Part shown: one piece after another, positions 119 to 63,566 of the stretch | Position numbering within the stretch: the stretch's first letter is position 1 | Layout of the letters: each line of letters begins with the position of its first letter | The notes under the pieces: model-generated | Databases searched by the model: none | What the model was told of the DNA's origin: nothing | What the model saw: the letters and a program-made list of their open reading frames with translations, nothing else | Source of the DNA: Antedon mediterranea | Taxonomy: Eukaryota; Echinodermata; Crinoidea; Comatulida; Antedonidae | Length of the DNA: 64,000 nt | Direction: 5' to 3' | Assembly: GCF_964355755.1 (NCBI RefSeq) | Contig: NC_092670.1 | Coordinates: 38,613,795 to 38,677,794, forward strand | Translations under genes and position numbers: made by a program

Positions 119-3100
119 GTGAATGCAGTGGATATGGTGACCCGCATTACTTTACTTTCGATGGTAAATCATATGATCACCAGGGCAACTGCACATATAT
201 CCTTTCACGTGATGCGTCACCAGAACACCAGTACACTGTATACATTCACAACGAAGAGTGCGCAAATTTCCCAGGTACCACTTGTCCCGAATCGATGACA
301 GTTCTTTACAAAAATTATACGATTGTTATGCAACATGACTTTGAGGTAATTTTCCTTTTTTTTTAAATTATTATTTTGGCTCGCAGTACAGACCTATCAC
401 AGCAAGCAAAGATAAAACTATATGTTTTTCTTAATTTCATTTAATTTATTTGGTCTCAAAACAAACAAAAAATATACGAGTAGATTACAAACGGTGAACT
501 AAATGAAAGCCGCAACCGATCATTAAAAATTCTTTAAACAATCTATAAAAATGTCTTTTTTAAACAAGACAATTGCTCTACAGGTAATAAAATGCATTTA
601 GATAAGTCTAGGAATGAATATTACAATTTACCAAAAACTGCAACACATTCTCTTAATCATCATTTTTATACTTCTGTTAGTTTAACGTTAGTGGAAATGT
701 AGTGTATGCTCCTGCATATTTCGATGGAATTGAGTTGCGTCAAAATGGTCTCAAAATGATGGTAATTGTTGCTGCAATTGGTTTAGAGGTTCGATTTGAA
801 CCACTGTCTCCGCGATATTTTCGTGTGGTTGTTTCTGCTCAATTGTTTTGGAATAACACAGAAGGATTATGCGGTAAGAAATACATCAATTCCTTCTGCC
901 CTCAATTTAAAGAATAGGGCACTTACTTCTGTCCACTACGCTTTTCCGGTGTAGGCTGCAGTCCTTGTCTACGTCCAACACCCTAACTTGTTTCTTTCCA
1001 CACTTGGAAAAAAAGTGCTTACATTTTCAACAATAAAATAATAATTATTCATTATTTAATTGTGTTTCTTAATCTTAAATGAAGCCCAACAGCAGATGTC
1101 TGGCGAATCTTCTCCGGGATCCTGGTGTTAGGATATTGTGATGATGGAACATTAATCATGTCCTTTATCGACTGAGTCTATTCTATCTCTATTCTTTTTC
1201 TATGTCACCTACTGTATTTTCTGTTTATAATATGAATTATTTATAATAATTTATTCTTTATCAGGTCTATGTAATAATATCACAGAGGATGATTTCATCT
1301 CACGTGAAGGCAAAGTGATTTCTGATCCGTTTGAGTTCGGTTACGAATGGCTTGAGTCTGTAAACGGTGATGAAGCCCACTGCATTCCACAAGTGAAACC
1401 AACTCAATGTATCCCCAGCCAGGAGATTATCGATTGGTGTGGTAACATGAATTCAACCGTGTTCCAATCATGTCATCCATACGTGGATCCACGAGAATAC
1501 TTCAAGACCTGTATTCGAGACAATTGCGCAGAAGGATTTCCAGGAAATTGCTGGGCCTTTGAAAGTTATGCTGAGGAATGTAGTGGATTGAAAGTGTGTA
1601 TTCCTTGGCGATCAGACGATTTTTGTCGTAAGTGATTTATCTTCTACTTGATAAACATTATAGGAAACGACTTCTAATTGTTTTCCCTTGCATATGTACA
1701 TTTCTTACAGTCATTCTTCAACAGAACATTATTTGATTTATATGGTCTTTTCCTTTTTAGCTGAAACATGTCCAGATGGCCTAGTGTACCGTCAATGCAA
1801 CTGTCCAATACCTGAGGTCGATAGCTGCTCATCCTGGGAAGAATTTGACTGTCCTCTTGATCCGATAGCTGGCTGTTTTTGTCCTGAAGGTACCGTTCCC
1901 GATGGAACTCATCCAAGTAATATGACCTGTATTCCCTGTGAAGGTATTATTTTACATATTTATCTACTGTTCTAACAAACGATGATAGGTTTCCCAAAAG
2001 TGCCTTTACAAATAAGCTTTCTCTCGGATGCAATACATTGACTTTATGCAAGACAACAAGACAATCAATGTTTCCGCATTTTGATGATAGGTTTCCCAAA
2101 AGTACCTTTACAAATAAACTTTCTCTCGGATGCAATACATTGATTTTATGCAAGACAACAAGACAATCAATGTTTCCACATTTTATACTGTGATGACGCT
2201 AGTTACTATCCGTTATGCATGAATAATTTCTAGAATTATTACGTAATGCATAACGTTATAAATTACGTAGTAAGCTGGGTACTCATTGTTCACAGACCAG
2301 TGGCTCGGTGATGCACTTGAAACAGGCCATCGTTGTTGTAAATAAATTACAAATGAATTTAACTTGATGTAATTATATTGCCAGACCTATACCTGTCAAA
2401 TAATACTAAACAGCATAATAGCACTAAGATTGTGATTTTGTCTGGATTACTGTAATTAATATTCAATTCAATGACTTATGACATGTAGAATTAACAAAAT
2501 AATGAACATAATGAACTATGAACTATGAACTATAATGTCTAATTATAACCGTTATATATGTTCAGTTACTCCACCACCAACAATACCAACAACAACAAAT
2601 CCTTGTCCTGAAGGTAAGCATTATTTGAATAATTACACAGCCAAACGTTGTAATATCAAATGATCAATGAAACAATTTTCCCGAGCGTTTCTGCTTTTTT
2701 AAATACACCTAAAAGTTACTTTACACAGACGCATTAGGGTTGGTGAGTACCCTGCCAAAATACGCAAGAATTTTGCCAAAATACGCAAATTGAGGGCGCT
2801 ATGCTTTGCCAAAATACACAAATCATGCCAAAATACGCAAATTGAGGGCGCTATGCTTTGCCAAAATACACAAATCATGCCAAAATACGCAAATCAGCCT
2901 TGCCCAAATACGCAAATCATGCCAAAATACGCAAATTGAGGGCGCTATGCTTTGCCAAAATACACAAATCATGCCAAAATACGCAAATCTGCTTTGCCAA
3001 AATACGCAAATCATGCCAAAATACACAAATTGAGGGCGCTATGCTTTGCCAAAATACACAAATCTGCTTTGCAAAAATACGCAAATCATGCCAAAATACG

Positions 3101-6100
3101 CAAATCATGCCAAAATACGCAAACTGAGGGCGCTATGCTTTGCCAAAATACACAAATCATGCCAAAATACACAAATCTGCTTTGCCAAAATACGCAAATC
3201 ATGCAAAATACGCAAATTGAGGGCGCTATAATTTGCCAAAATACGCAAATCATGCCAAAATACACAAATCATGCCGGAAAGCACAAATCTGCTTTGCCAA
3301 AATACGCAAATCATGCAAAATACGCAAATTGAGGGCGCTATGATTTGCCAAAATATGCAAATCATGCCGCCAATACGCAAATTGAGGGTGCTATGCTTTG
3401 CCAAAATACACAATCATGCCCAAATACGCAAATTGAGGGCGCTATGCTTTGCAAAAATACGCAAATCATTCGCTCCTCCTTGTAAAGAGGCCCGAAAAAA
3501 CATATTGGCTTAGCAAGAGGTACAAAAACGTAGCCGTATACTTTACTATCATAATGTTCATATTTATTAGCAATCATATAAACGTATTTATCTTAGATTA
3601 AATATCTAATGCACATTTACTTCTGAAAAGAAATTTATTACCACCATGCTTTATTTACGATACTTTAACGGCCTAGAAATATTCAACCATGCGTACACCA
3701 GCATGGTCTTTTCTTGTCATTTCCCCATCTACATCCCACCGACTGTCTGTAGGCTATGTGAACATTAAGGATTACTCATTCTTCTCATCAGTATTTTCTT
3801 TAATAATTCAAAAACCGCAAAGGGAATGTGTTGTACTTTTAAAGATTTATAAGACTTTGTGTAGAGCATCTGTGTTTGTATTATTTGTGATTCATGTAAG
3901 CGGGAAACCGCCTTGTAAGCCACTAGCCTTAATGTTAATGTTGCTATGTGGCCTTTTCAGAGGATACTTATTACTTGTCTCCAGCGTTGCCAGCGATAAA
4001 ATTTAAATTATGCCGTAGCCTGTCTCAAATAATGCCAGATTGGGAAAAATAATGGCAAATCCCTAAAATGTGGCCCTAATTAGCGCCACCAACGGTTGCA
4101 TGTTTAAAAAACGTCTGTAAAACCCCAACTGACACAAAGGGCCTAAAATGTTATCCCATGTCGTTAAAAATTTATATTTTTAGTTTTGTGTGTAATAACT
4201 AATATAATTCCCAATATCTGGGGTGCGAAAATGGTAATTGCAAATGTCATCAAACACCACCAGCCCGCCACCAAATTTAAAACCTGCTACAGCTACGGAA
4301 ACTTTAAATTGTTTAGCTGAAATATGTTTGGAAATATCATAAAAATATATTAAATGTCTTCAAGACCCCAGCCCACCATGGTTGGAAAATTGGAAAATTT
4401 TGAAAAAATGGAGAGCTGCTCGTTGGCCGGAAATGGCACTTATTTTCAAATATGAAATTAAAATATATTTATTAGTGCCTTCAGGATCTTAGCAAACCAT
4501 GGTCCAAAAATGGCACTTATAATTTAAAATAGGAAATAAAAATGTATATTAGTGTCTCCAGGACCTCTGCCCCACCATAGTTGGGGCTGAGGTAAGAAAA
4601 TTTGGAAAAATAGAGCTGCTCGATGGCCGGAAATATATGAGTCTCTAGGACCTCGGCCCACCATGGTCACTGGGGCTGAGATAACATTTGGAACAAGGCC
4701 ATACAATGGCTGCAGTCGCGTGCTCAACTACGCAACTTGGACAGCACCGAAAATATAGTTATACAATGTTATGTTGAGAAGATTTAGAGATACACGCGCA
4801 ACAAAATTCGTGGAAAGAAGAAAAGACTAAAAATAGGACTGCTAAACGATGCAAATGAAACTGAATTTGAAATATGGAAAACAAATTCTCTAGTAGATTT
4901 TTGTCTCTTTCGTCATAGCTCATCACATTTGATAGAGCGCATCTCGACTTATCCGTATTCCATTCCCCCCCCCCCCCCCATATATGGTCCGGTATCACTA
5001 TATGCGTTTTATCGCTTTTCTGTACTTTTTGAACTGTTTTGATGTACAGACAAGTTTTAAAGTAGGCCTACATTACTTTTTGAAAGTTCATTTTTTTCTG
5101 AGAGCACGCGACTTATGGCTGTTGGCCTTGTTAAAATTGCTATGAGGCCATCATGTGCAAAAGTGTAAATAGCTTTGGTCACGTAATTTCATCATTCCAA
5201 TCAATTTCAATATGTTACAGCTCCTCAGAGTAAAAAGTGATACTCATGATTAAAACGTTTTCTGGAATCTATTGAATTGAAGATACGAATTCATGTACAA
5301 ATTTTGCGCATCGGATGCTGTGACGTCATCATATGGCCAGTTGAATTATAAACGTCATACTTTCATATATTTTTTTTCTCCATATTCTTCGTATCCAAAT
5401 TCCTTCAACACGTCAATATGCGGTTGCTCAGATAATTCCCTTCCAAAATTGCTATCTACGTGCTTCATTTTGATGACATGACATGTTAAAAATTTGATTA
5501 AAATGTGGGTCTCGTAATTTCATGACACAAAATAGGTACAATTCAGCACTGTAAATATATTTAATTCATGTCATAGGATGGCATAATAATTGTCGCCGTT
5601 GATATTTTAACGTATGTGCATGTTGAGGTAGCGGATACGCCGCTTATAATTATGAACTGAAAAAAACAAAACCCTTCATAATGTTTTCGGTTAATTTTCT
5701 CTACATCTGGGGATCCAATAACCTACATGAACTCTGAAATACTTAGCAACATAATTGGTCAATCGCGGCTAGCCTCGTCGGTTTCGTTGTGCTGCCTATC
5801 GCACACACGGGAGTTTGTGAGCAGCCAATTCCTATCCGAAGAGTCGATCGAATCCGAAACAAAAGGATGGATGCACTATTGTACGAAAAAACCTGACAGA
5901 CCTGTTTTGTACGATATGATATTGTGTACAGTGTAAGGTGATATGTACGAAATTGCAAGATTAAACAAAATATTATTGTTGTTCTGTGGTATATTATTTT
6001 TTTAGTTGTTCAAAAAACACAAAATTATGCCAGATTAATATACTAAAAACGGCTAAATAATGCCGCGGCATTTTCCCAGACGCCGTGGGCCTCTAAATAA

Positions 6101-6985
6101 TGCCAAAAAGCATAATAATGCCAGAAATGGCAACTATGCTTGTCTCCAATTATGTCGTCTAGCTTACATTGATATAAATCTATTCAATCTACAATAGGCC
6201 TATAGTTAATAAATTAGTACTTGCTTTACTCGCTTTTTAGCAATAAAGAATGGATATAATTCGTTTTTACTGTTTAAAACTGTCTTCGACCAGTTGATTT
6301 TATTTTCATCCGAGTGCGTACGTTTTTATGCTTTTGGTATGTTTACGGTACACCTCAAGTTGTGTGTTGCCAAAGTGCTAGTCAACGAGGCACGCAATGC
6401 ACACAATCCACGCAATGCATGCAATCCTCGACGACGGTAATTCAACGGAAAAATTACCAACAAGTGCGATCCTTCGAATAATAATAAGCCTTCGTTAATA
6501 TTTGTGTACAATTCATAAACATTTATGAATCACCTACCGTTAATGTAATTATGTTAACAATTTCGAATATCCAGATGCGACTTCGATGTCTACAAGCGAG
6601 ACCAACAAGAAGGGAGCAGCAGTAGTCTGTATAAATTCATTTCATATCGTTTACATTTACTTTTTTTATATTCATAGTTGAGCCTATTGGATGTATTGTT
6701 ATTGAATCTGACCCGGTAGAAGTACGAGACGGTACCTGTATTGGCAACACATCCTCAACCTCTTGTCTTGGCAAATGCGAGTCTTCGTACAAAATCACAG
6801 GCTACACAGACGGGGTTCCAAGTACTGAAAAAGAATGTCCACTATGCGAACCGGTCCGGTTTAGCACCGAAGTCGTCGATCTGGTCTGCCCCGGAAATCT
6901 ATCAAAACAAGTAGAGGTGCAGAAGATAATGGAGTGCAGTTGTAGCGCAAGGGACCATATTTGTCCAGATATCTTGCTAGATTAG
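119..6985 (+). CDS. VWD-C8-TIL-cystine-knot secreted protein (5' partial)
   Basis: This is the C-terminal part of a large secreted, cysteine-rich glycoprotein; the 5' part lies outside the window. Exons: 119-345, 681-873, 1265-1627, 1761-1943, 2566-2613, 6678-6985; the phases chain without a break to the TAG stop. In order the frame shows a von Willebrand D domain (GYGDPHYFTFDGKSYDHQG, ending in GLCGLCNN), a C8 domain (exon 3), a TIL-type cysteine-rich segment (CPDGLVYRQCNCP, exon 4), a short Pro/Thr linker (TPPPTIPTTT) and a C-terminal cystine-knot domain (CIVIES...CLGKCES...CSCSARDHIC). In VWF, gel-forming mucins and hemocytins, D domains mediate disulfide multimerisation and the cystine knot mediates dimerisation. 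The combination fits a mucin/hemocytin/VWF-like protein of extracellular matrix, mucus or clot. Which one cannot be decided from the C-terminus alone. The last intron is 4 kb and carries repeats and a transposon. Confidence 0.88.
346..680 (+). other. intron of VWD-domain gene, no feature
   Basis: AT-rich intron between the two exons that encode the VWD domain, with a GTAATT donor and a TTCTGTTAG acceptor. I see no repeat or gene in it. Confidence 0.6.
1981..2184. repeat. two-copy tandem duplication, 102-bp unit
   Basis: Two adjacent near-identical copies starting GATGATAGGTTTCCCAAAAG at 1981 and 2083, a few substitutions apart, inside the intron between the TIL exon and the linker exon. Confidence 0.85.
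2752..3468. repeat. intronic minisatellite of AAAATACGCAAAT-type units
   Basis: About 700 bp of short interspersed repeats. A 17-18 bp motif (TGCCAAAATACGCAAATCA) alternates with a GAGGGCGCTATGCTTTGC motif, giving a composite unit of roughly 50-110 bp. The array lies in the last intron of the VWD gene. Both strands are open over long stretches because the units contain few stops; the apparent peptides are repeat translations and not genes. Confidence 0.9.
3982..6138. mobile_element. hAT-type non-autonomous transposon, 2.16 kb
   Basis: The element is flanked by a perfect 8-bp duplication CTTGTCTC at 3974-3981 and 6139-6146. Its ends are imperfect inverted repeats: CAGCGTTGCCA at the left and the reverse complement of CATAGTTGCCA at the right, followed by AATAATGCC-rich subterminal sequence on both sides. 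An 8-bp duplication with CA(G)..GTTGCCA ends is typical of the hAT superfamily. I recognise no transposase inside. The interior holds a degenerate direct repeat around CCACCATGG (4360-4680) and a 15-base C run at 4965-4979. Confidence 0.75.
4965..4979 (+). repeat. poly-C run
   Basis: Fifteen consecutive C residues inside the hAT-type element. Its length is prone to sequencing and replication error. Confidence 0.9.
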
Positions 6986-7925: not shown

Positions 7926-18880
<10,955 letters not shown>

Positions 18881-28022: not shown

Positions 28023-39962
<11,940 letters not shown>

Positions 39963-52570: not shown

Positions 52571-53202
52571 TGTAAAATGCAGTAAAAAAATACAATAAGA
52601 AAAACAAAATTAATATAAAATACTAAATCTTTATACTCTGTTAGAGCTGTTTTGAAACACACAATGCATGTGATAATGCTAGTCTAGTATCTCTCTTATG
52701 TAAGTACAGTTCGAAGTTCGTAATCAAATAATAGTCTGGTGGGCTTAAGGTTTACTCACATAGAGATAATGAATCTCTATGGTTTCTAGGCCTATGTATT
52801 ATATAACAATAACAATATAAAGAACATACGGCATCCACAAACCATAGAAAAAATACAAATAAGACACATCACATAAATTTCCAACGGGCGTCAACAAACG
52901 AGCATAAATGCAGAATTCATGAAGACCATGGAGTAAATAAAGATCAAGATTACATTTAACATTAGTAAATGAAAGAAATTAGGTGGAGTTGGTATGACAG
53001 TCTAAAGTTCAACAATAATGTACAGCATAAAAACATATTCATGTTTCTATTGGATACAATTTGTGTAGAGCCAGACCTGTGTACGGTTTACGCAATTACT
53101 ACAGTTCATTAATAATATAGGCAGGCCTAGGCTAGTAGGGGAATCTGCTAGTAGTGGCCAGACAGGCAGAGAGGGCGGCCGCCCTGCCTACAATTACCTG
53201 TA
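52571..53202. other. sialidase upstream region
   Basis: TTTTACAG on the minus strand at about 52570-52577 could be a splice acceptor, so a 5' non-coding exon probably lies farther upstream, possibly beyond the foldback element. Otherwise I see only a small hairpin (CATAGAGATAATGAATCTCTATG near 52759-52781) and a NotI-like GCGGCCGC at 53175-53182. Confidence 0.4.
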
Positions 53203-53211
53203 CTTCTAGGC
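53203..53211 (+). repeat. target-site duplication, left
   Basis: CTTCTAGGC, identical to 63558-63566. Confidence 0.9.
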
Positions 53212-53349
53212 GCTTGTGTCAAGCTAGCCAACAATAAGCCAGCCAACAATAAGCCAGCCCACTTTTATTTTTTCCAGCCAACAATAACTATGAAACGCCG
53301 TTTGTGCATTCTTTACATTTTCATTGTTACTTATGGCTTTTATGGTATT

Positions 53350-56300
53350 AGGAATTAAATATTTGTGAGAAAAACGGCGGATTGTTCCTGGGATTCACTT
53401 GGTGGGATTATACTAGGGTGCCTCCTTAGTCGTCCAGTATAAGTTAGAGTGGGACCACTGGTCACGTTTACTCAGCCCTCATCTTTAAAATTTGAGTGTA
53501 ACTCAATTACGATTTTTAAAATATAGTTAAATTTGAAACTGTATTTGTGAGAAAATGGCGGATTGTTCCTGGGAGTCACTTGGTGGGATTATACTAGGGT
53601 ACCCCCTTAGTCGTCCAGTATAAGTAAGAGTGGGACCACTGGTCCGGTTTACTCAGCCCTCATCTTTTAAATTTGAGTGTAACTCAATTACAATTTTTAA
53701 AATATAGTTAAATTTGAAACTGTATTTGTGAGAAAATGGCGGATTGTTCCTGGGAATCACTTGGGGGGATTATACTAGGGTACCTCCTTAGTCGTCCAGT
53801 ATACGTTAGAGTGCGACCACTGGTCCCGTTTACTCAGCCCTCATCTTTTAAATTTGAGTGTAACTCATTTACGATTTTTAAAATATAGTGAAATTTGATA
53901 CTGTATTTGTGAGAAAACGGCGGATTGTTCCTGAGAGTCACTTGGTGGGATTATACTAGGGTACCTCTTTAGTCATCCTGTATAAGTTAGAGTAGGACCA
54001 CTGGTCCCGTTTACTCAACCCTCATCTTTAAAATTTGAGTGTAACTCAATTACAATTTTTAAAATATAGTTAAATTTGAAACTGTATTTGTGAGAAAATG
54101 GCGGATTGTTCCTGGGAGTCACTTGGTGGGATTATACTAAGGTACCTCTTAGTCGTCCAGAATAAATTAGAGTGGGACCACTGGTACCGTTTACTCAGCC
54201 CTCATCTTTAAAATTTGAGTGTAACTCATTTACGATTTAAAAAATATAGTGAAATTTGATACTGTATTTGTGAGAAAATGGCGGATTGTTCCCGGGAGTC
54301 ACTTGGTGGGATTATACTAGGGTACCTTCTTAGTTGTCCAGTATAAGTTAGAGTGGGACCACTGGTCCCGTTTACTCAGCTCTCATCTTTAAAATTTGAG
54401 TGTAACTCATTTACGATTTTTAAAATATAGTGAAATTTGATACTGTACTGTATTTGTGAGAAAACGGCGGATTGTTCCTGGGATTCACTTGGTGGGATTA
54501 TACTAGGGTACCTCTTTAGTTGTCCAGTTTAAGTTAGAGTGGGACCACTGGTCCCGTTTACTCAGCCCTTATCTTTAAAATTTGAGTGTAACTCAATTAC
54601 GAATAATATTTTAAAATATAGTGAAATTTGATACTGTATTTGTGATAAAATGGCGGATTGTTCCTGGGAGTCACTTGGTGGGAATATACTAGGGTACCCC
54701 CTTAGTCGTCCAGTATAAGTTAGAGTGGGACCAATGGTCCCGTTTACTCAGCCCTCATCTTTAAAATTTGAGTGTAACTCATTTACTATTTTTAAAATAT
54801 AGTGAAATTTGAAACTGTATTTGTGAGAAAACGGCGGATTGTTCCTGAGATTCACTTGGTGGGATTATACTAGGGTACACCCTTAGTCGTTCAGTATAAA
54901 GTAGAGTGGGACCACTGGTCCCGTTTACTTAGCCCTCATCTTTAAAATTTGAGTGTAACTCATTTACGATTTTTTAAATATAGTGAAATTTGATACTGTG
55001 TTTGTGAGAAAACGGCGGATTGTTACTGAGAGTCACTTGGTGGGATTATACTAGGGTACCTCTTTAGTCATCCTGTATAAGTTAGAGTGGGACCACTGGT
55101 CCCGTTTACTCAGCCCTCATCTTTAAAATTTGAGTGTAACTCAATTACAATTTTTAAAATATAGTTAAATTTGAAACTGTATTTGTGAGAAAATGGCGGA
55201 TTGTTCTTGGGAGTCACTTGGTGGGATTATACTAGGGTACCTCCTTAGTCGTCCAGTGAAAGTTAGAGTGGTACCACTGGTTCCGTTTACTCAGCCCTCA
55301 TCTTTTAAATTTGAGTGTAACTCAATTACGAATAATATTTTAAAATATAGTGAAATTTTATACTGCATTTGTGATAAAATGGCGGATCGTTCCTGGGAGT
55401 CACTTGGTGGGAATATACTAGGGTACCCCCTTAGTCGTCCAGTATAAGTTAGAGTGGGACCACTGGTCCCGTTTACTCAGCCCTCATCTTTAAAATTTGA
55501 GTGTAACTCATTTACGATTTTTAAAATATAGTGAATTTTGATACTGTATTTGTGAGAAAACGGCGGATTGTTCCCGAGAGTCACTTGGTGGGATTATACT
55601 AGGGTACCTCTTTATTCATCCTGTATAAGTTAGAGTGGGATCACTGGTCCCGTTTACTCAGCCCTCATCTTTAAAATTTGAGTGTAACTCAATTACAATT
55701 TTTAAAATATAGTTAAATTTGAAACTGTATTTGTGAGAAAATGGCGGATTGTTCCTGGGAGTCACTTGGTGGGATTATACTAGGGTACCTCCTTAGTCGT
55801 CGAGTAAAAGTTAGAGTGGTACCACTGGTTCCGTTTACTCAGCCCTCATCTTTTAAATTTGAGTGTAACTCATTTACGATTTTTAAAATATAGTGAAATT
55901 TGATACTGTATTTGTGAGAAAATGGCGGATTGTTCCTGGGAGTCACTTGGTGCGATTATACTAGGGTACCTCCTTAGTTGTCCAGTATAAGTTAGAGTGG
56001 GACCACTGGTCCGGTTTACTCAGCCCTCATCTTTAAAATTTGAGTGTAACTCAATTACGATTAATATTTTAAAATATAGTGAAATTTGATACTGTATTTG
56101 TGAGAAAATGGCGGATTGTTCCTGGGAGTCACTTGGAGGGATTATACTAGGGTACCTCCTTAGTTGTCCAGTTTAAGTTAGAGTGGGACCACTGGTCCCG
56201 TTTACTCAGCCCTTCTCTTTAAAATTTGAGTGTAACTCAATTACGATTAGTATTTTAAAATATAGTGAAATTTGATACTGTATTTGTGAGAAAATGGCGG

Positions 56301-57873
56301 ATTATTCTTGGGAGTCACTTGGTGGGACTATACTAGAGTACCCTCTTAGTCGTCCAGTATAAGTTAGAGTGGGATCACTGGTCCGGTTTACTCAGCCCTC
56401 ATCTTTAAAATTTGAGTGTAACTCATTTACGATTTTTAAAATATAGTGAAATTTGATACTGTATTTGTGAGAAAATGGCGGATTGTTCCTGGGAGTCACT
56501 TGGTGGGATTATACTTGGGTACCCCCTTAGTCGTCCAGTATAAGTTAGAGTGGGACCACTGGTCCCGTTTACTCAGCCCTCATCTTTAAAATTTGAGTGT
56601 AACTCATTTACGATTTCTAAAATATAGTGAAATTTGATACTGTATTTGTACGAAAATGGCGGATTGTTCCTGGGAATCACTTGGTGGGGTTATACTAGGG
56701 TACCTACTTAGTCGTCCAGTATAAGTTAGAGTGCGACCACTGGTCCCGTTTACTCAGCCCTCATCTTTTAAATTTGAGTGTAACTCATTTACGATTTTTA
56801 AAATATAGTGAAATTTGATACTGTATTTGTGAGAAAACGGCGGATTGTTCCTGGGAGTCACATGGTGTGATTATACTAGGATACCTCCTTAGTTGTCCAG
56901 TATAAGTTAGAGTGTGGCCGCTGGTCCCGTTTACTCAGCCCTCATCTTTAAAATTTGAGTGTAACTCAATTATGAAAACATTTTTAAAATATAGTGAAAT
57001 TTGATACTGTATTTGTGAGAAAATGGCGGATTGTTCCTGAGAGTCACTTGGTGGGATTATACTAGAGTACCTCTTTTGTCATCCTGTATAAGTTAGAGTT
57101 GGACCACTGGTCCCGTTTACTCAGCCCTCATCTTTAAAATTTGAGTGTAACTCAATTACAATTTTTAAAATATAGTTAAATTTGAAACTGTATTTGTGAG
57201 AAAATGGCGGATTGTTCCTGGGAGTCACTTGGTGGGATTATACTAGGGTACCTCCTTAGTCGTCCTGTAAAAGTTAGAGTGGTACCACTGGTTCCGTTTA
57301 CTCAGCCCTCATCTTTTAAAATTGAGTTTAACTCATTTACGATTTTTAAAATATAGTGAAATTTGATACTGTATTTGTGAGAAAATGGCGGATTGTTCCT
57401 GGGAGTCACTTGGTGGGATAATACTAGGGTACCTTCTTAGTTGTCCAGTATAAGTTAGAGTGGGACCACTGGTCCCGTTTACTAACCCCTCATATTTAAC
57501 ATTTGAGTGTAACTCAATTACGATTAATATTTTAAAATATAGTGAAATTTGATACTGTATTTGTGAGAAAATGGCGGATTGTTCCTGGGAGTCACTTGGA
57601 GGGATTATACTAAGGTACCCCCTTAGTTGTCCAGTTTAAGTTAGAGTGGGACCACTGGTCCCGTTTACTCAGCCCTTATCTTTAAAATTTGAGTGTAACT
57701 CAATTACGATTAATATTTTAAAATATAGTGAAATTTGATACTGTATTTGTGAGAAAATGGCGGATTGTTCCTGGGAGTCACTTGGTGGGATTATACTAGG
57801 GTACCCCCTTAGTCGTCCGGTATAAGTTAGAGTGGGACCACTGGTCCGGTTTACTCAGCCATCACCTTTGAGT
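53350..57873 (+). repeat. left arm tandem array, about 25 units of ~182 bp
   Basis: The unit runs TATTTGTGAGAAAATGGCGG, ATTGTTCCTGGGAGTCACTT, GGTGGGATTATACTAGGGTA, CAGTATAAGTTAGAGTGGGA, GGGACCACTGGTCCC, TTTACTCAGCCCTCATC, TTGAGTGTAACTCA, TTTTAAAATATAGT. It holds two short palindromes (GGGACCACTGGTCCC and TGAGTGTAACTCA). Units begin near 53541, 53724, 53906, 54084, 54265 and onward. The last unit is cut at about 57873. Confidence 0.95.
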
Positions 57874-57877
57874 GTAA

Positions 57878-60800
57878 GTGACTCTCAGGAACAATCCGCC
57901 GTTTTCTCACAAATACAGTATCAAATTTCACTATATTTTAAAAATCGTAAATGAGTTGCACTCAAATTTTAAAGATGAGGGCTGAGTAAACGGGACCAGT
58001 GGTCCCACTCTCACTTATACTGGACAACTAAGGAAGTACCCTAGTATAATTCCACCAAGTGACTCCCAGGAACAATCCGCCATTTCCTCACAAATACAGT
58101 TTCAAATTTAACTATATTTTAAAAATTGTAATTGAGTTGCACTCAAATTTTAAAGATGAGGGCTGATTAAACGGGACAAGTGGTCCCACTCTAACTTATA
58201 CTGGACGACTTAGGGTGTACCCTAGTATAATCCCACCAAGTGACTCTCAGGAACAATCCGCCGTTTTCTCACAAATACAGTTTCAAATTTCACTAAATTT
58301 TTAAAATCGTAAATGAGTTACACTCAAATTTTAAAGATAAGGGCTGAGTAAACGGAACCAGTGGTCCCACTCTCACTTATACTGGACAACTAAGGAAGTA
58401 CCCTAGTATAATTCCACCAAGTGACTCCCAGGAACAATCCGCCATTTCCTCACAAATACAGTTTCAAATTTAACTATATTTTAAAAATTGTAATTGAGTT
58501 GCACTCAAATTTTAAAGATGAGGGCTGAGTAAACGGGACAAGTGGTCCCACTCTAACTTATACTGGACGACTTAGGGTGTACCCTAGTATAATCCCACCA
58601 AGTGACTCTCAGGAACAATCCGCCGTTTTCTCACAAATACAGTTTCAAATTTCACTATATTTTAAAATATTAATCGTAATTGAGTTACACTCAAATTTTA
58701 AAGATGAGGACTGAGTAAACGGGACCAGTGGTCCCACTCTAACTTATACTGGACAACTAAGGAGGTACCCTAGTATAATCCCACCAAGTGACTCCCAGGA
58801 ACAATCCGCCATTTTCTCACCAATACAGTATCAATTTTCAATATATTTTAAAAATTTTATCGTTATTGAGTTACACTCAAATTTAAAAGATGAGGGCTGA
58901 GTAAACGGGACCAGTGGTCGCACTTTAACTTATACTGGACGACTAAGGACGTACTCTAGTATAATCCCACCATGTGACTCCCAGGAACAATCCGCCGTTT
59001 TTTCCCAAATACAGTTTCAAATTTAACTATATTTTAAAAATTGTAATTGAGTTGCACTCAAATTTAAAAGATGAGGGCTGAGTAAACGGGACCAGTGGTC
59101 CAACTCTAACTTAAACTGGACAACTAAGGAGGTACCCTAGTATAATCCCACCAAGTAACTCCGAGGAACAATCCGCCATTTTCTCACTAATACAGTATCA
59201 AATTTCAATATATTTTAAAATATTAATCGTAATTGAGTTACACTCAAACGTTAAAGATGAGGGCTGAGTAAACGGGACCAGTGGTCCCACTCTAACTAAT
59301 ACTGGACAACTAAGGAGGTACCCTAGTGTAATCCCACCAAGTAACTCCCAGGAACAATCCGTCAGTTTCTCACAAATACAGTATCAATTTTCACTATATT
59401 TTAAAAATTTTATCGTAATTGAGTTACACTCAAATTTAAAAGATGAGGGCTGAGTAAACGGGACCAGTGGTCGCACTCTAACTTATACTGGACGACTAAG
59501 GACCTACCCTAGTATAATCCCACCATGTGACTCCCAGGAACAATCCGCCGTTTTCACACAAATACAGTTTCAAATTTAACTATATTTTAAAAATTGTAAT
59601 TGAGTTGCACTCACATTTTAAAGATGAGGGCTGAGTAAACGGGACCAGTGGTCCCACTCTAACTTATACTGGATGATTAAAGAGGTTCCCTAGTATAATC
59701 CAACCAAGTGACTCTCAGGAACAATCCGCCGTTTTCTCACAAATACAGTATCAAATTTCACTATATTTTAAAAATCGTAAATGAGTTACACTCAAATTTT
59801 AAAGATTAGGGCTGAGTAAACGGGACCAGTGGTCCACTCTAACTTATACTGGACGACTTAAGGTGTACCCTAGTATAATCCCACCAAGTGACTCTCAGGA
59901 ACAATCCGCCGTTTTCTCACAAATACAGTTTCAAGTTTCACTATAATTTAAAAATCGTAAATGAGTTGCACTCAAATTTTAAAGATGAGGGCTGAGTAAA
60001 CGGGACAAGTGGTCCCACTCTAACTTATACTGGACAACTAATGAGGTACCCTAGTATAATCCCACCAAGTGACTCCCAGGAACAATCCGCCATTTTCTCA
60101 CAAATACAGTATCAATTTTCACTATATTTTAAAAATTTTATCGTAATTGAGTTACACTCAAATTTAAAAGATGAGGGCTGAGTAAACGGGACCAGTGGTC
60201 GCACTTTAACTTATACTGGACGACTAAGGACGTACTCTAGTATAATCCCACCATGTGACTCCCAGGAACAATCCGCCGTTTTTTCACAAATACAGTTTCA
60301 AATTTAACTATATTTTAAAAATTGTAATTGAGTTGCACTCAAATTTTAAAGATTAGGGCTGAGTAAACGGGACAAGTGGTCCCACTCTAACTTATACTGG
60401 ACGACTTAGGGTGCACCCTAGTATAATCCCACCAAGTGACTCTCAGGAACAATCCGCCATTTTCTCTCTAATACAGTATCAAATTTCACTATATTTTAAA
60501 ATATTAATCGTAATTGAGTTACACTCAAACGTTAAAGATGAGGGCTGAGTAAACGGGACCAGTGGTCCCACTCTAACTTATACTGGACAACTAATGAGGT
60601 ACCCTAGTATAATCCCACCAAGTGACTCCCAGGAACAATCCGCCATTTTCTCACAAATACAGTATCAATTTTCACTATATTTTAAAAATTTTATCGTAAT
60701 TGAGTTACACTCAAATTTAAAAGATGAGGGCTGAGTAAACGGGACCAGTGGTCGCACTTTAACTTATACTGGACGACTAAGGACGTACTCTAGTATAATC

Positions 60801-63405
60801 CCACCATGTGACTCCCAGGAACAATCCGCCGTTTTTTCACAAATACAGTTTCAAATTTAACTATATTTTAAAAATTGTAATTGAGTTGCACTCAAATTAA
60901 AAAGATGAGGGCTGAGTAAACGGAACCAGTGGTCCCACTCTAACTTAAACTGGACAACTAAGGAGGTACCCTAGTATAATCCCACCAAGTGACTCCGAGG
61001 AACAATCCGCCATTTTCTCTCTAATACAGTATCAAATTTCAATATATTTTAAAATATTAATCGTAATTGAGTTACACTCAAATTTTAAAGATGAGGGCTG
61101 AGTAAACGGGACCAGTGGTCCCACTCTAACTAATACTGGACAACTAAGGAGGTACCCTGGTGTAATCCCACCAAGTAACTCCCAGGAACAATCCGCCAGT
61201 TTCTCACAAATACAGTATCAATTTTCACTATATTTTAAAAATTTTATCGTAATTGAGTTACACTCAAATTTAAAAGATGAGGGCTGAGTAAACGGGACCA
61301 GTGGTCGCACTCTAACTTATACTGGACGACTAATGACGTACCCTAGTATAATCCCACCATGTTACTCCCAGGAACAATCCGCCGTTTTCACACAAATATA
61401 GTTTCAAATTTAACTATATTTTAAAAATTGTAATTGAGTTGCACTCAAATTTTAAAGATGAGGGCTGAGTAAACGGGACCAGTGGTCCGACTCTAACTTA
61501 TACTGGATGAATAAAGAGGTTCCCTAGTATAATCCCACCAAGTGACTCTCAGGAACAATCCGCCGTTTGCTCACAAATACAGTATCAAATTTCACTATAT
61601 TTTAAAAATCGTAAATGAGTTACACTCAAATTTTAAAGATGAGGGCTGAGTAAACGGGACCAGTGGTTCCACTCTAACTTATACTGGACGACTTAGGGTG
61701 TACCCTAGTACAATCCCACCAAGTGACTCTCAGGAACAATCCGCCGTTTTCTGACAAATACAGTTTCAAATTTCAGTATATTTTAAAAATCGTAAATGAG
61801 TTACACTCAAATTTTAAAGATGAGGGCTAAGTAAACGGGACCAGTGGTCCCACTCTAACTTATACTGGACGACTAAGGGGCTACCCTAGTATAATACCAC
61901 CAAGTGACTCCCAGGAACAATCCGCCATTTTCTCACAAATACAGTATCAATTTTCACTATATTTTAAAAATTTTATCGTAATTGAGTTACACTCAAATTT
62001 AAAAGATAAGGGCCGAGTAAACGGGACCAGTGGTCCCACTCTAACTTAAACTGGACAACTAAGGAGGTACCCTAGTATAATCCCACCAAGTGACTCCCAG
62101 GAACAATCCGCCATTTTCTCACTAATACAGTATCAAATTTCACTATATTTTTCAAATCGTAAATGAGTTACACTCAAATTTAAAAGATGAGGGCTGAGTA
62201 AACGGGACCAATGGTCCCACTCTAACTTATACTGGACGACTAAGGGGGTACCCTAGTATAATCCCCAACCAAGTGACTCTCAGGAACAATCCGCCGTTTT
62301 CTCACAAATACAGTATCAAATTTCACTATATTTTAAAAATCGTAAATGAGTTACACTCAAACTTTAAAGATGAGGGTTGAGTAAACGGGACCAGTGGTCC
62401 CACTCTAACTTATACTCTACAACTAAAGAGGTACCCTATAGTATAATCCCACCAAGTGACTCCCAGGAACAATGTGCCATTTTCTCACAAATACAGTATC
62501 AATTTTCACTATATTTTAAAAATGTTATCGTAATTTAGCTAGTTACACTCAAATTTAAAAGATGAGGGCTGAGTAAACGGGACCAGTTGTCGCACTCTAA
62601 CTTATACTGGACGACTAAGGAGGTACCCTAGTATAATCCCACCAAGTGACTCTCATGAACAATCCGCCGTTTTCTCACAAATACAGTATCAAATTTCACT
62701 ATATTTTAAAAATCGTAAATGAGTTACACTCAAAATTTTAAAAATGAGGGCTGAGTAAACGGGACCAGTGGTCCTACTCTAACTTATACTGGGTGACTAA
62801 TGAGGTACCCTAGTATAATCCCACCAAGTGACTCCCAGGAACAATCCGCCATTTTCTTACAAATACAAGTTCAAATTTAACTATATTTTAAAAATCGTAA
62901 TTGAGTTACACTCAGATTTAAAAGATGAGGGCTGAGTAAACGGGACCAGTGGTCCCACTCTAACTTATACTGGACGACTAAGGAGGTACCCTAGTATAAT
63001 CCCGCCAAGTGATGCCCAGGAACAATCCGCCGTTTTCGCACAGATACAGTTTCAAATTTCACTATATTTTAAAAATCGTAATTGGGTTACATTCAAATTT
63101 AAAAGATGAGGGCTGAGTAAACGGGACCAGTGGTCCTACTCTAACTTATACTGGGCGACTAAGGAGGTACCCTAGTATAATCCTACCAAGTGACTTCCAG
63201 GAACAATCCGCCGTTTTCTCACAATTACAATATCAAATTTCACTATATATTAACAATCGTAATTGAGTTATACTGAAATTTAAAAGATGAGGGCTGAGTA
63301 AACGGGACCAGTGGTCCAACTCTAACCTATACTGGACGACTAACGAGGTACCCTAGTATAATCCCACCAAGTGAATCCCAGGAACAATCCGCCGTTTTTC
63401 TCACA
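57878..63405 (-). repeat. right arm tandem array, about 31 units of ~182 bp
   Basis: Same unit on the minus strand. Variant units recur: ones with CCACCATGTGACTCCCAGG lie near 58973, 59520, 60250, 60805 and (CATGTTACTCCC) 61356, giving a roughly 550-bp three-unit higher-order period with one four-unit step. Confidence 0.95.
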
Positions 63406-63557
63406 AATATTTAATTCCTAATACCATAAAAGCCATAAGTAACAATGAAAATGTAAAGAATGCACAAACCGCGTTTCATAGTTATTGTTGGCTGGAAAAA
63501 ATAAAAGTGGGCTGGCTTATTGTTGGCTGGCTTATTGTTGGCTAGCTTGACACAAGC

Positions 63558-63566
63558 CTTCTAGGC
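63558..63566 (+). repeat. target-site duplication, right
   Basis: CTTCTAGGC, identical to 53203-53211. Confidence 0.9.

What the first reader, a model, noticed from the sequence alone, without database searches (positions are those of the whole stretch)
53212..63557. A 10.3 kb foldback transposon with a perfect 9-bp target-site duplication
Seen: CTTCTAGGC on both sides, near-identical ~200-bp inverted termini, and arms of about 25 and 31 tandem ~182-bp units facing each other with almost no spacer. Known: Drosophila FB elements have long inverted termini with inner tandem repeats and make 9-bp duplications. Inference: this is a FB-like, possibly Mutator-related family that can move as a unit despite being almost wholly satellite. 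A cruciform of 4-5 kb per arm is possible. The intact duplication and near-identical termini argue for fairly recent insertion.
Basis: partly seen in the sequence, partly recalled or inferred. Interest (0 to 1): 0.88.

Follow-up and report, generated by a model that had tools for sequence, protein, structure and literature searches.

The report
Foldback transposon made of satellite DNA
This is a mobile DNA element made almost wholly of two facing arrays of a short repeat; the genome holds a family of them, one carries a likely enzyme gene, and about half of those checked sit a short distance from a particular DNA word, so it may show how satellite DNA can jump and choose where it lands.

Summary
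It belongs to a family: an 18-bp tip search found 89 sites (backward-read control 0), from which I paired 27 elements of 7.5-33 kb. Twenty-four of 27 meet the duplication criterion that 0 of 702 mismatched pairs meet. Joined flanks of two other members match unbroken repeats elsewhere, i.e. paralogous empty sites. Two 13-kb members at different sites differ by 11 bases and exactly one 182-bp unit, so the satellite palindrome moves whole. One 33-kb member has a core coding for PHD-finger, DDE-like, ubiquitin-protease and Ulp1 domains. PHD finger, 9-bp duplication and satellite-bearing inverted termini fit Rehavkus, a Mutator-related group; homology to Rehavkus itself could not be tested. Eleven of twelve members read whole lack the core, with 10 different centre junctions. 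Unexpected: 14 of 26 insertions lie 25-60 bp from a GGCGC/GGGCG word (4% expected), with 5 of 18 further termini (2% expected). New variant of a known kind.

The parts
53203..53211 (.). left target-site duplication CTTCTAGGC
53212..53358 (+). left terminal inverted repeat tip (147 bp, non-satellite)
   Evidence: 40 scored genome matches of 95 candidates, 26 of them 100% identical
53212..53224 (.). terminal palindrome GCTTG-TGT-CAAGC
   Evidence: read from the sequence
53221..53259 (+). 15-bp subterminal tandem repeat (2.6 copies), candidate transposase-binding sites (inferred)
53360..57869 (+). left arm: tandem ~181-bp units, 24.7 copies
57872..57875 (.). centre junction where the two arms meet, GTGT overlap, no core
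57876..63409 (-). right arm: tandem ~181-bp units in the opposite orientation, 30.2 copies
63411..63557 (-). right terminal inverted repeat tip
63510..63548 (-). 15-bp subterminal tandem repeat, right
63545..63557 (.). terminal palindrome, right copy
   Evidence: read from the sequence
63558..63566 (.). right target-site duplication CTTCTAGGC
53171..53180 (+). GAGGGCGGCC, the motif near the insertion point (32-41 bp outside the element border)

Best explanation
The window element is a non-autonomous (core-less) copy of a recently active foldback DNA transposon family of Rehavkus type (Mutator-related). Shown: a common terminus; 8-9 bp duplications; whole elements at different sites with their arrays; array change by a whole unit; centres that differ from copy to copy; one member with a core that codes for PHD-finger, DDE-like, ubiquitin-protease and Ulp1-protease domains. 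Inferred: the transposase made by such a core-bearing copy binds the palindromic tip and the 15-bp repeats, cuts the element out and joins it to a target with a 9-bp stagger; the satellite arms grow and shrink by unequal exchange or slippage; the centre of the palindrome breaks and is rejoined, often at short homologies, which deletes the core and leaves arms that meet head-on but can still be moved in trans. Target choice is guided, perhaps by tethering to a protein bound at a GRKGGCG motif 25-60 bp away.
For: Family and tips. Duplications of 27: 18 perfect 9-bp at the border plus 1 outside a 10-bp partial tip copy, 3 perfect 8-bp, 3 nine-bp with one mismatch, 1 with two mismatches, 1 none; 0 of 702 mismatched pairs pass. 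Empty sites for 2 of 8 members tried: C5:1140428 (120 bp unbroken at 100% in 9 places, more at 98-99%) and C3:20650318 (124 bp at 98% in 2 places). Movement whole: C1:21189257 and C10:3232243 share the same centre junction, 11 mismatches in 12,981 aligned bases and one 182-bp gap, with different duplications; C4:3991330 and C7:1168087 9 mismatches in 10,926, a 178-bp gap at the centre and a 1-bp gap, with different duplications. Window versus C3:20650318 (which lies the other way round): arms collinear at 98.3% and 96.9%; the smaller copy lacks 140 bp and about 2.7 kb at the centre. Ten different centre junctions in 11 core-less copies, overlaps of 0-8 bp. Core in C3:8279859-8313032: ORFs of 1108 and 774 aa; PHD 8.4e-6, UCH 1.7e-20, Peptidase_C48 9.8e-19; D868, D944 and a CxxH at 991-994 by position. 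Rehavkus features: PMC6446971 (passages, section 8) and PMC10218199 (passages).
Against: No match of the core ORFs to PF10551 at E up to 1, and profile comparison of the DDE region with five MULE-like proteins of the same genome gave 0.1% probability. No Rehavkus or NOF sequence was on hand to compare. The core-bearing copy is one in 12 read whole, so the link between core and family rests on one locus with an intact 9-bp duplication. Fifteen of 27 paired elements were not read through. Several centre junctions fit the arm sequences imperfectly (68-76 of 80 for five of the ten kinds, 78 for one) and 4 of the 10 kinds show no overlap. No expression or excision data.
Confidence: 0.82

Rival explanations
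1. The family is moved in trans by an ordinary MULE (Phantom/Ghost type) elsewhere in the genome, and the C3 core is a chance passenger.
For: 36 PF10551 matches in the genome; MULE foldbacks with 8-9 bp duplications are known: Tm1 (PMC3169594, passages), Muta1 (PMC5225508, passages).
Against: By coordinates none of the 36 matches lies inside one of the 27 paired elements. The core has the PHD finger reported for Rehavkus.
Confidence: 0.12
2. A foldback of another superfamily, such as Galileo (P superfamily), or a KDZ/Ginger-like transposon with protease domains.
For: Foldback shape arises in unrelated superfamilies (stated in PMC3169594 and PMC4079207, passages); a paper on Ginger elements holds the words Ulp1 and PHD many times (search listing only).
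Against: 8-9 bp duplications; no P, THAP, integrase or KDZ model among the Pfam families listed at E up to 1 for the core ORFs.
Confidence: 0.08
3. Assembly artefact: a collapsed or mirrored satellite array.
For: Long palindromes are hard to assemble; no reads were available.
Against: 27 paired copies on seven large contigs, ending in the same tips at different sites, 24 of them with duplications by the control criterion; a single-unit difference between siblings; empty sites for two.
Confidence: 0.02
4. The motif near insertions reflects open or GC-richer chromatin, or retention by selection, rather than tethering by a bound protein.
For: Flanks are 39.6% GC against 34.9%; other DNA transposons correlate with CTCF-bound chromatin (PMC5333637, passages). 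Two of the 18 further termini have such a word closer in, at 11-13 bp.
Against: In 52 flank sides the words are in 0, 9, 5, 3, 0 for successive 20-bp bins from the border and 0-2 per bin beyond, with about 0.6 expected; composition alone would not make such a band.
Confidence: 0.4

Closest known systems
Rehavkus (Repbase group; Rehavkus-1_TC of Tribolium)
   Same: 9-bp duplication, PHD finger in the transposase, minisatellite by the TIR (PMC6446971, Table 1 row in a passage and section 8); Rehavkus-1_TC is 9.5 kb with a 164-bp satellite unit in its inverted termini (PMC10218199, passages).
   Different: Here the arrays are far longer than the mostly five and eight monomers cited there, 11 of 12 copies read whole lack the core, and the core adds ubiquitin-protease and Ulp1 domains (no full Rehavkus protein was seen to compare). 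Reported hosts are insects/arthropods and annelids; the host here is unnamed.
Drosophila FB / FB-NOF
   Same: Long inverted termini with inner tandem repeats, 9-bp duplications, optional coding core (recalled).
   Different: No FB or NOF sequence could be compared; the unit of ~181 bp and total size are much larger (recalled).
Tetris (Drosophila virilis)
   Same: Foldback with ~220-bp tandem units in its TIRs and 8-10 bp duplications (PMC4079207, passages).
   Different: TIRs up to 1,735 bp only, and no transposase source was found there.
Tm1 (Meloidogyne) and Muta1 (Aedes)
   Same: Foldback-like TIRs with short tandem repeats and mostly 8-9 bp duplications; Muta1 has a palindromic tip motif (PMC3169594 and PMC5225508, passages).
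   Different: Repeats of 12-15 bp only, and MULE transposases (PF10551 match stated for Tm1).

Membership tests
Foldback DNA transposon (structural class) | long inverted termini with inner tandem repeats | tested here: met
Foldback DNA transposon (structural class) | moves as a unit with target-site duplication and empty sites | tested here: met
   (empty sites for 2 of 8 tried; not for the window copy)
Rehavkus | 9-bp target-site duplication | tested here: met
   of 27, 19 perfect 9-bp (one outside a 10-bp partial tip copy), 3 perfect 8-bp, 4 imperfect 9-bp, 1 none
Rehavkus | TIR of 26-400 bp | tested here: met
   147-bp non-satellite tip shared by the copies, then the array
Rehavkus | PHD finger in the transposase | tested here: met
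   PF00628, 26.2 bits against cut-off 24, in ORF1 of the C3 core
Rehavkus | minisatellite next to the TIR | tested here: met
   ~181-bp arrays in both arms; the source places it before the 3' TIR
Rehavkus | DDE domain homologous to Rehavkus transposases | not testable with these tools
   no Rehavkus sequence held
MULE proper (PF10551) | match to the MULE transposase domain | tested here: not met
   no match at E up to 1 for the core ORFs; hhalign 0.1%
MULE/hAT-type DDE transposase | DDE with CxxH | tested here: inconclusive
   VIDATG, INMD and CTSH seen in order; alignment with two related loci keeps the INMD/VEID acid and the CxxH; third acid not fixed, no fold made
Galileo / P superfamily | 7-bp duplication (recalled) | tested here: not met
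Drosophila FB / NOF | sequence homology to FB termini or the NOF protein | not testable with these tools
   no sequence held

The most novel reading that the evidence does not exclude
The family inserts by tethering: its transposase complex is placed 25-60 bp from sites of a host DNA-binding protein whose motif, near ATTGAGGGCGCTATTT with GRKGGCG at its heart, resembles the CTCF core (recalled). Large satellite palindromes would thereby be planted beside insulator-like sites and could alter chromatin folding there, with the PHD, ubiquitin-protease and Ulp1 domains acting on chromatin at the target.
Probability: 0.4. Interest if true: 0.8.

Novelty: new variant of a known kind. Interest (0 to 1): 0.62.

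Why it matters
It shows satellite arrays of 7.5-27 kb moving whole as transposons, with a single-unit change between near-identical siblings, which makes the path from transposon to satellite (and back) directly measurable. It adds a possible autonomous partner with ubiquitin-protease and Ulp1 domains to a group that, per PMC6446971 (section 8), is described in Repbase only. If the spacing from the GRKGGCG motif reflects tethering, it is a natural case of a DNA transposon aimed by a host DNA-binding protein.

Tried and rejected
Dating by terminus identity was rejected: tips are near-identical from copy to copy (26 of 40 scored matches at 100%, subfamily of the window only) while the arms of single elements differ by 4-7%. 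A scan of viral contigs with the DDE region found no relative. The other inverted family that flanks the short relatives was not resolved. The idea that the satellite unit itself carries the target motif is weak: units hold a GAGGGCTGA-like site above the 99.9% control level, but one chance hit in a 181-bp unit is not surprising. A structure prediction of the core protein was not sent: the tool's text names sources that do not include genome-fetch loci, so it was left out. The joined-flank search took 8 of 26 joined sites and scored 40 of 139 candidates, most of them copies of one repeat; no match for the other 6 shows nothing. Text searches for PHD, ubiquitin and Ulp1 with Mutator listed no title that names this combination; only listings and the starts of abstracts were seen, so no claim of priority is made.
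Full report
Observation. The element is at the stated place. Its ends, the 9-bp duplication CTTCTAGGC (53203-53211 and 63558-63566), the 199 of 200 identical terminal bases and the two facing arrays were checked. TRF gives 24.7 and 30.2 copies of a 181-bp unit. The arms meet at 57872-57875 with a 4-bp overlap and no core.

A family. The window lies at G000:C1:38613795-38677794 in a 354-Mb genome of 18 contigs. A search with the 147-bp tip scored 40 of 95 candidates and all 40 match; these are the window's subfamily. The 18-bp tip gave 89 sites with up to 2 mismatches, against 0 for the same pattern read backwards; some of the two-mismatch sites may be chance. From I paired 27 elements (window included) of 7.5-33.2 kb on seven contigs, a plus tip followed by a minus tip; the rest of the sites are single, short or degenerate. 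Two subfamilies differ at AACAATA/GACAATA in the tip. Of 27, 18 have perfect 9-bp duplications at the border and one more (C3:32277395) outside a 10-bp partial copy of the tip; 3 have perfect 8-bp, 3 nine-bp with one mismatch, 1 (C7:1140462) with two, and 1 (C4:17145022, left tip damaged) none. With the criterion used for the control (at most 1 mismatch in 9, or 8 of 8) 24 of 27 pass, or 25 with C3:32277395 corrected, against 0 of 702 mismatched pairs. All genome counts are lower bounds, since only the best candidates are scored.

Empty sites. I joined 60+60 flanking bases of 8 members with one copy of the duplication and searched them. Two gave unbroken matches over the joint: C5:1140428, 120 bp at 100% in nine places (more at 98-99%), and C3:20650318, 124 bp at 98% in two places. 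So these two elements inserted into copies of older repeats. The window copy and five others gave no listed match; 40 of 139 candidates were scored, most of them copies of one repeat, so this shows nothing about them.

Movement as a unit. Twelve elements were read whole (and the window). C1:21189257 and C10:3232243 (13.2 and 13.0 kb, different duplications) have the same centre junction, 11 mismatches in 12,981 aligned bases and a single gap of 182 bp, one unit. C4:3991330 and C7:1168087 have 9 mismatches in 10,926, a 178-bp gap at the centre and a 1-bp gap. The window element and C3:20650318, which lies the other way round, have collinear arms (98.3% over 5.5 kb and 96.9% over 2 kb, with gaps of 2 and 5 bp), the smaller lacking 140 bp and about 2.7 kb at the centre. 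Eleven of the twelve have no core; their centre junctions are of 10 kinds with overlaps of 0-8 bp, 4 of the 10 with none, and six of the ten fit the arm sequences imperfectly, five of them at 68-76 of 80. Repeated end-joining at the middle of a palindrome is the reading (inferred). Within one element 1.5 kb of array in the two arms is 93-96% alike in all twelve.

The core-bearing copy. C3:8279859-8313032 (33.2 kb, perfect duplication ATGTGCGAG) has arms of about 10 and 7.5 kb around 15.7 kb of other DNA. That holds ORFs of 1108 and 774 aa in the same direction. ORF1 has a PHD finger (8.4e-6) and ORF2 a ubiquitin hydrolase (1.7e-20) and a Ulp1 protease domain (9.8e-19). ORF1 shows VIDATG from 866 (D868), INMD from 941 (D944) and CTSH at 991-994, an order that fits a DDE enzyme with CxxH; PF10551 did not match at E up to 1 and hhalign with five MULE-like proteins of this genome failed (0.1%). 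Divergent relatives lie elsewhere, one with its own PHD finger (L070), and a broken closer one at C4:12.43 Mb. Of 12 and 4 matches listed, only the C3 locus covers the whole query at high identity. A GT...AG intron between the ORFs is possible (inferred). The core also holds other dispersed repeats.

What it is. PMC6446971 (passages and section 8) gives for Rehavkus a 9-bp duplication, TIRs of 26-400 bp, a PHD finger and a minisatellite, hosts arthropods and annelids, and treats it as outgroup to or member of MULEs. PMC10218199 (passages; [quoted passage not shown] These features are met here. Tetris (PMC4079207, passages), Tm1 (PMC3169594, passages) and Muta1 (PMC5225508, passages) are parallel cases. 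That RepeatMasker calls this group MULE-NOF is recalled. Membership in Rehavkus is therefore likely but not proven by sequence.

Where it inserts. A k-mer count on the 27 flank pairs (100 bp each side) found AGGGCG/CGCCCT in 11 against 0.83 expected (P 1.8e-10 among 1,620 six-mers; background 390 segments of 200 bp, mostly the window). With flanks to 300 bp for 26 elements (C4:17145022 left out), GGCGC/GCGCC/GGGCG/CGCCC is in 0, 9, 5, 3 and 0 of 52 flank sides for successive 20-bp bins from the border, then 0-2 per bin, against 1.1-1.3% per bin in controls (10 loci at round positions, and the window), i.e. about 0.6 of 52. Fourteen of 26 elements have it 25-60 bp out on either side, expected 4%, P about 1e-13; ranges of the same width further out give 3, 2, 0, 1 and 2 of 26. 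The range was set after seeing the data. Eighteen further termini, seen on one side only, gave 5 hits in the same range (2.0% expected, P 2e-5). This second set was not blind: seven of its flanks, two of the hits among them, were printed and all, before the range was fixed; the words had been taken from the paired set. Two of the 18 have such a word closer in, at 11-13 bp. A weight matrix made from 18 paired sites only gives, in the 18 further termini, 2 and 4 hits in the 20-39 and 40-59 bp bins, 0.36 expected per bin, and 0-2 elsewhere. The fitted motif is ATTGAGGGCGCTATTT, with GRKGGCG at its heart. Flanks share no longer homology at E 1e-3 apart from two 18-21-bp matches. The likeness to the CTCF core is recalled. 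Tol2 and piggyBac insertions correlate with CTCF sites in mouse cells (PMC5333637, passages), so a chromatin preference has precedent; a short set distance from a sequence word is what is added here. Whether other transposons in this genome show it was not tested.

Limits. No reads, no second individual, no name for the host, no expression data, no structure model, and 15 of 27 paired elements not read through.

Noticed in passing
L053 (C3:25733741-25734508), L054 (C5:10442626-10443373), L055, L082: Short (~550 bp) or broken relatives whose tips lie inside a second inverted sequence (TATAAACGTTGAGGGCAGC...), which was scored at 40 places (of 51 candidates), several of them inverted pairs 0.7-3.4 kb apart. 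How the two came together is unclear.
   Followed up: partly
C7:23903809-23935298 (L039, L040, L068, L078): A foldback whose right tip is split by a ~15-kb insertion.
   Followed up: partly
C3:32277395 (L013): A 10-bp partial copy of the tip sits between the duplication and the left tip, as if the end slipped during insertion.
   Followed up: no
C1:23750569-23755354: Four copies of a tip-like 18-mer (TCTTGTGTCAAGCTAGCT) in the same direction at ~1.5-1.6-kb spacing.
   Followed up: no
window 2753-3469: A TGCCAAAATACGCAAAT/GAGGGCGCTATG tandem array that also occurs in the C3 core; it contains the GAGGGCGCTAT word found near the insertions.
   Followed up: partly
window 34068-34272 and about a dozen shorter places: A 21-bp word near ATATCACTACCATATTTGGGC recurs through the window as short arrays in both orientations.
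   Followed up: no
window 8632-9090 and 9642-10127; 1231-1632; 6635-6982: Open frames with argonaute N-terminal (the second below its cut-off), C8 and DAN domains.
   Followed up: no
L070 (C2:17926300-17929300): Another transposon-like locus with a PHD finger and a related DDE region, 31% identical to the C3 protein over 166 residues.
   Followed up: partly
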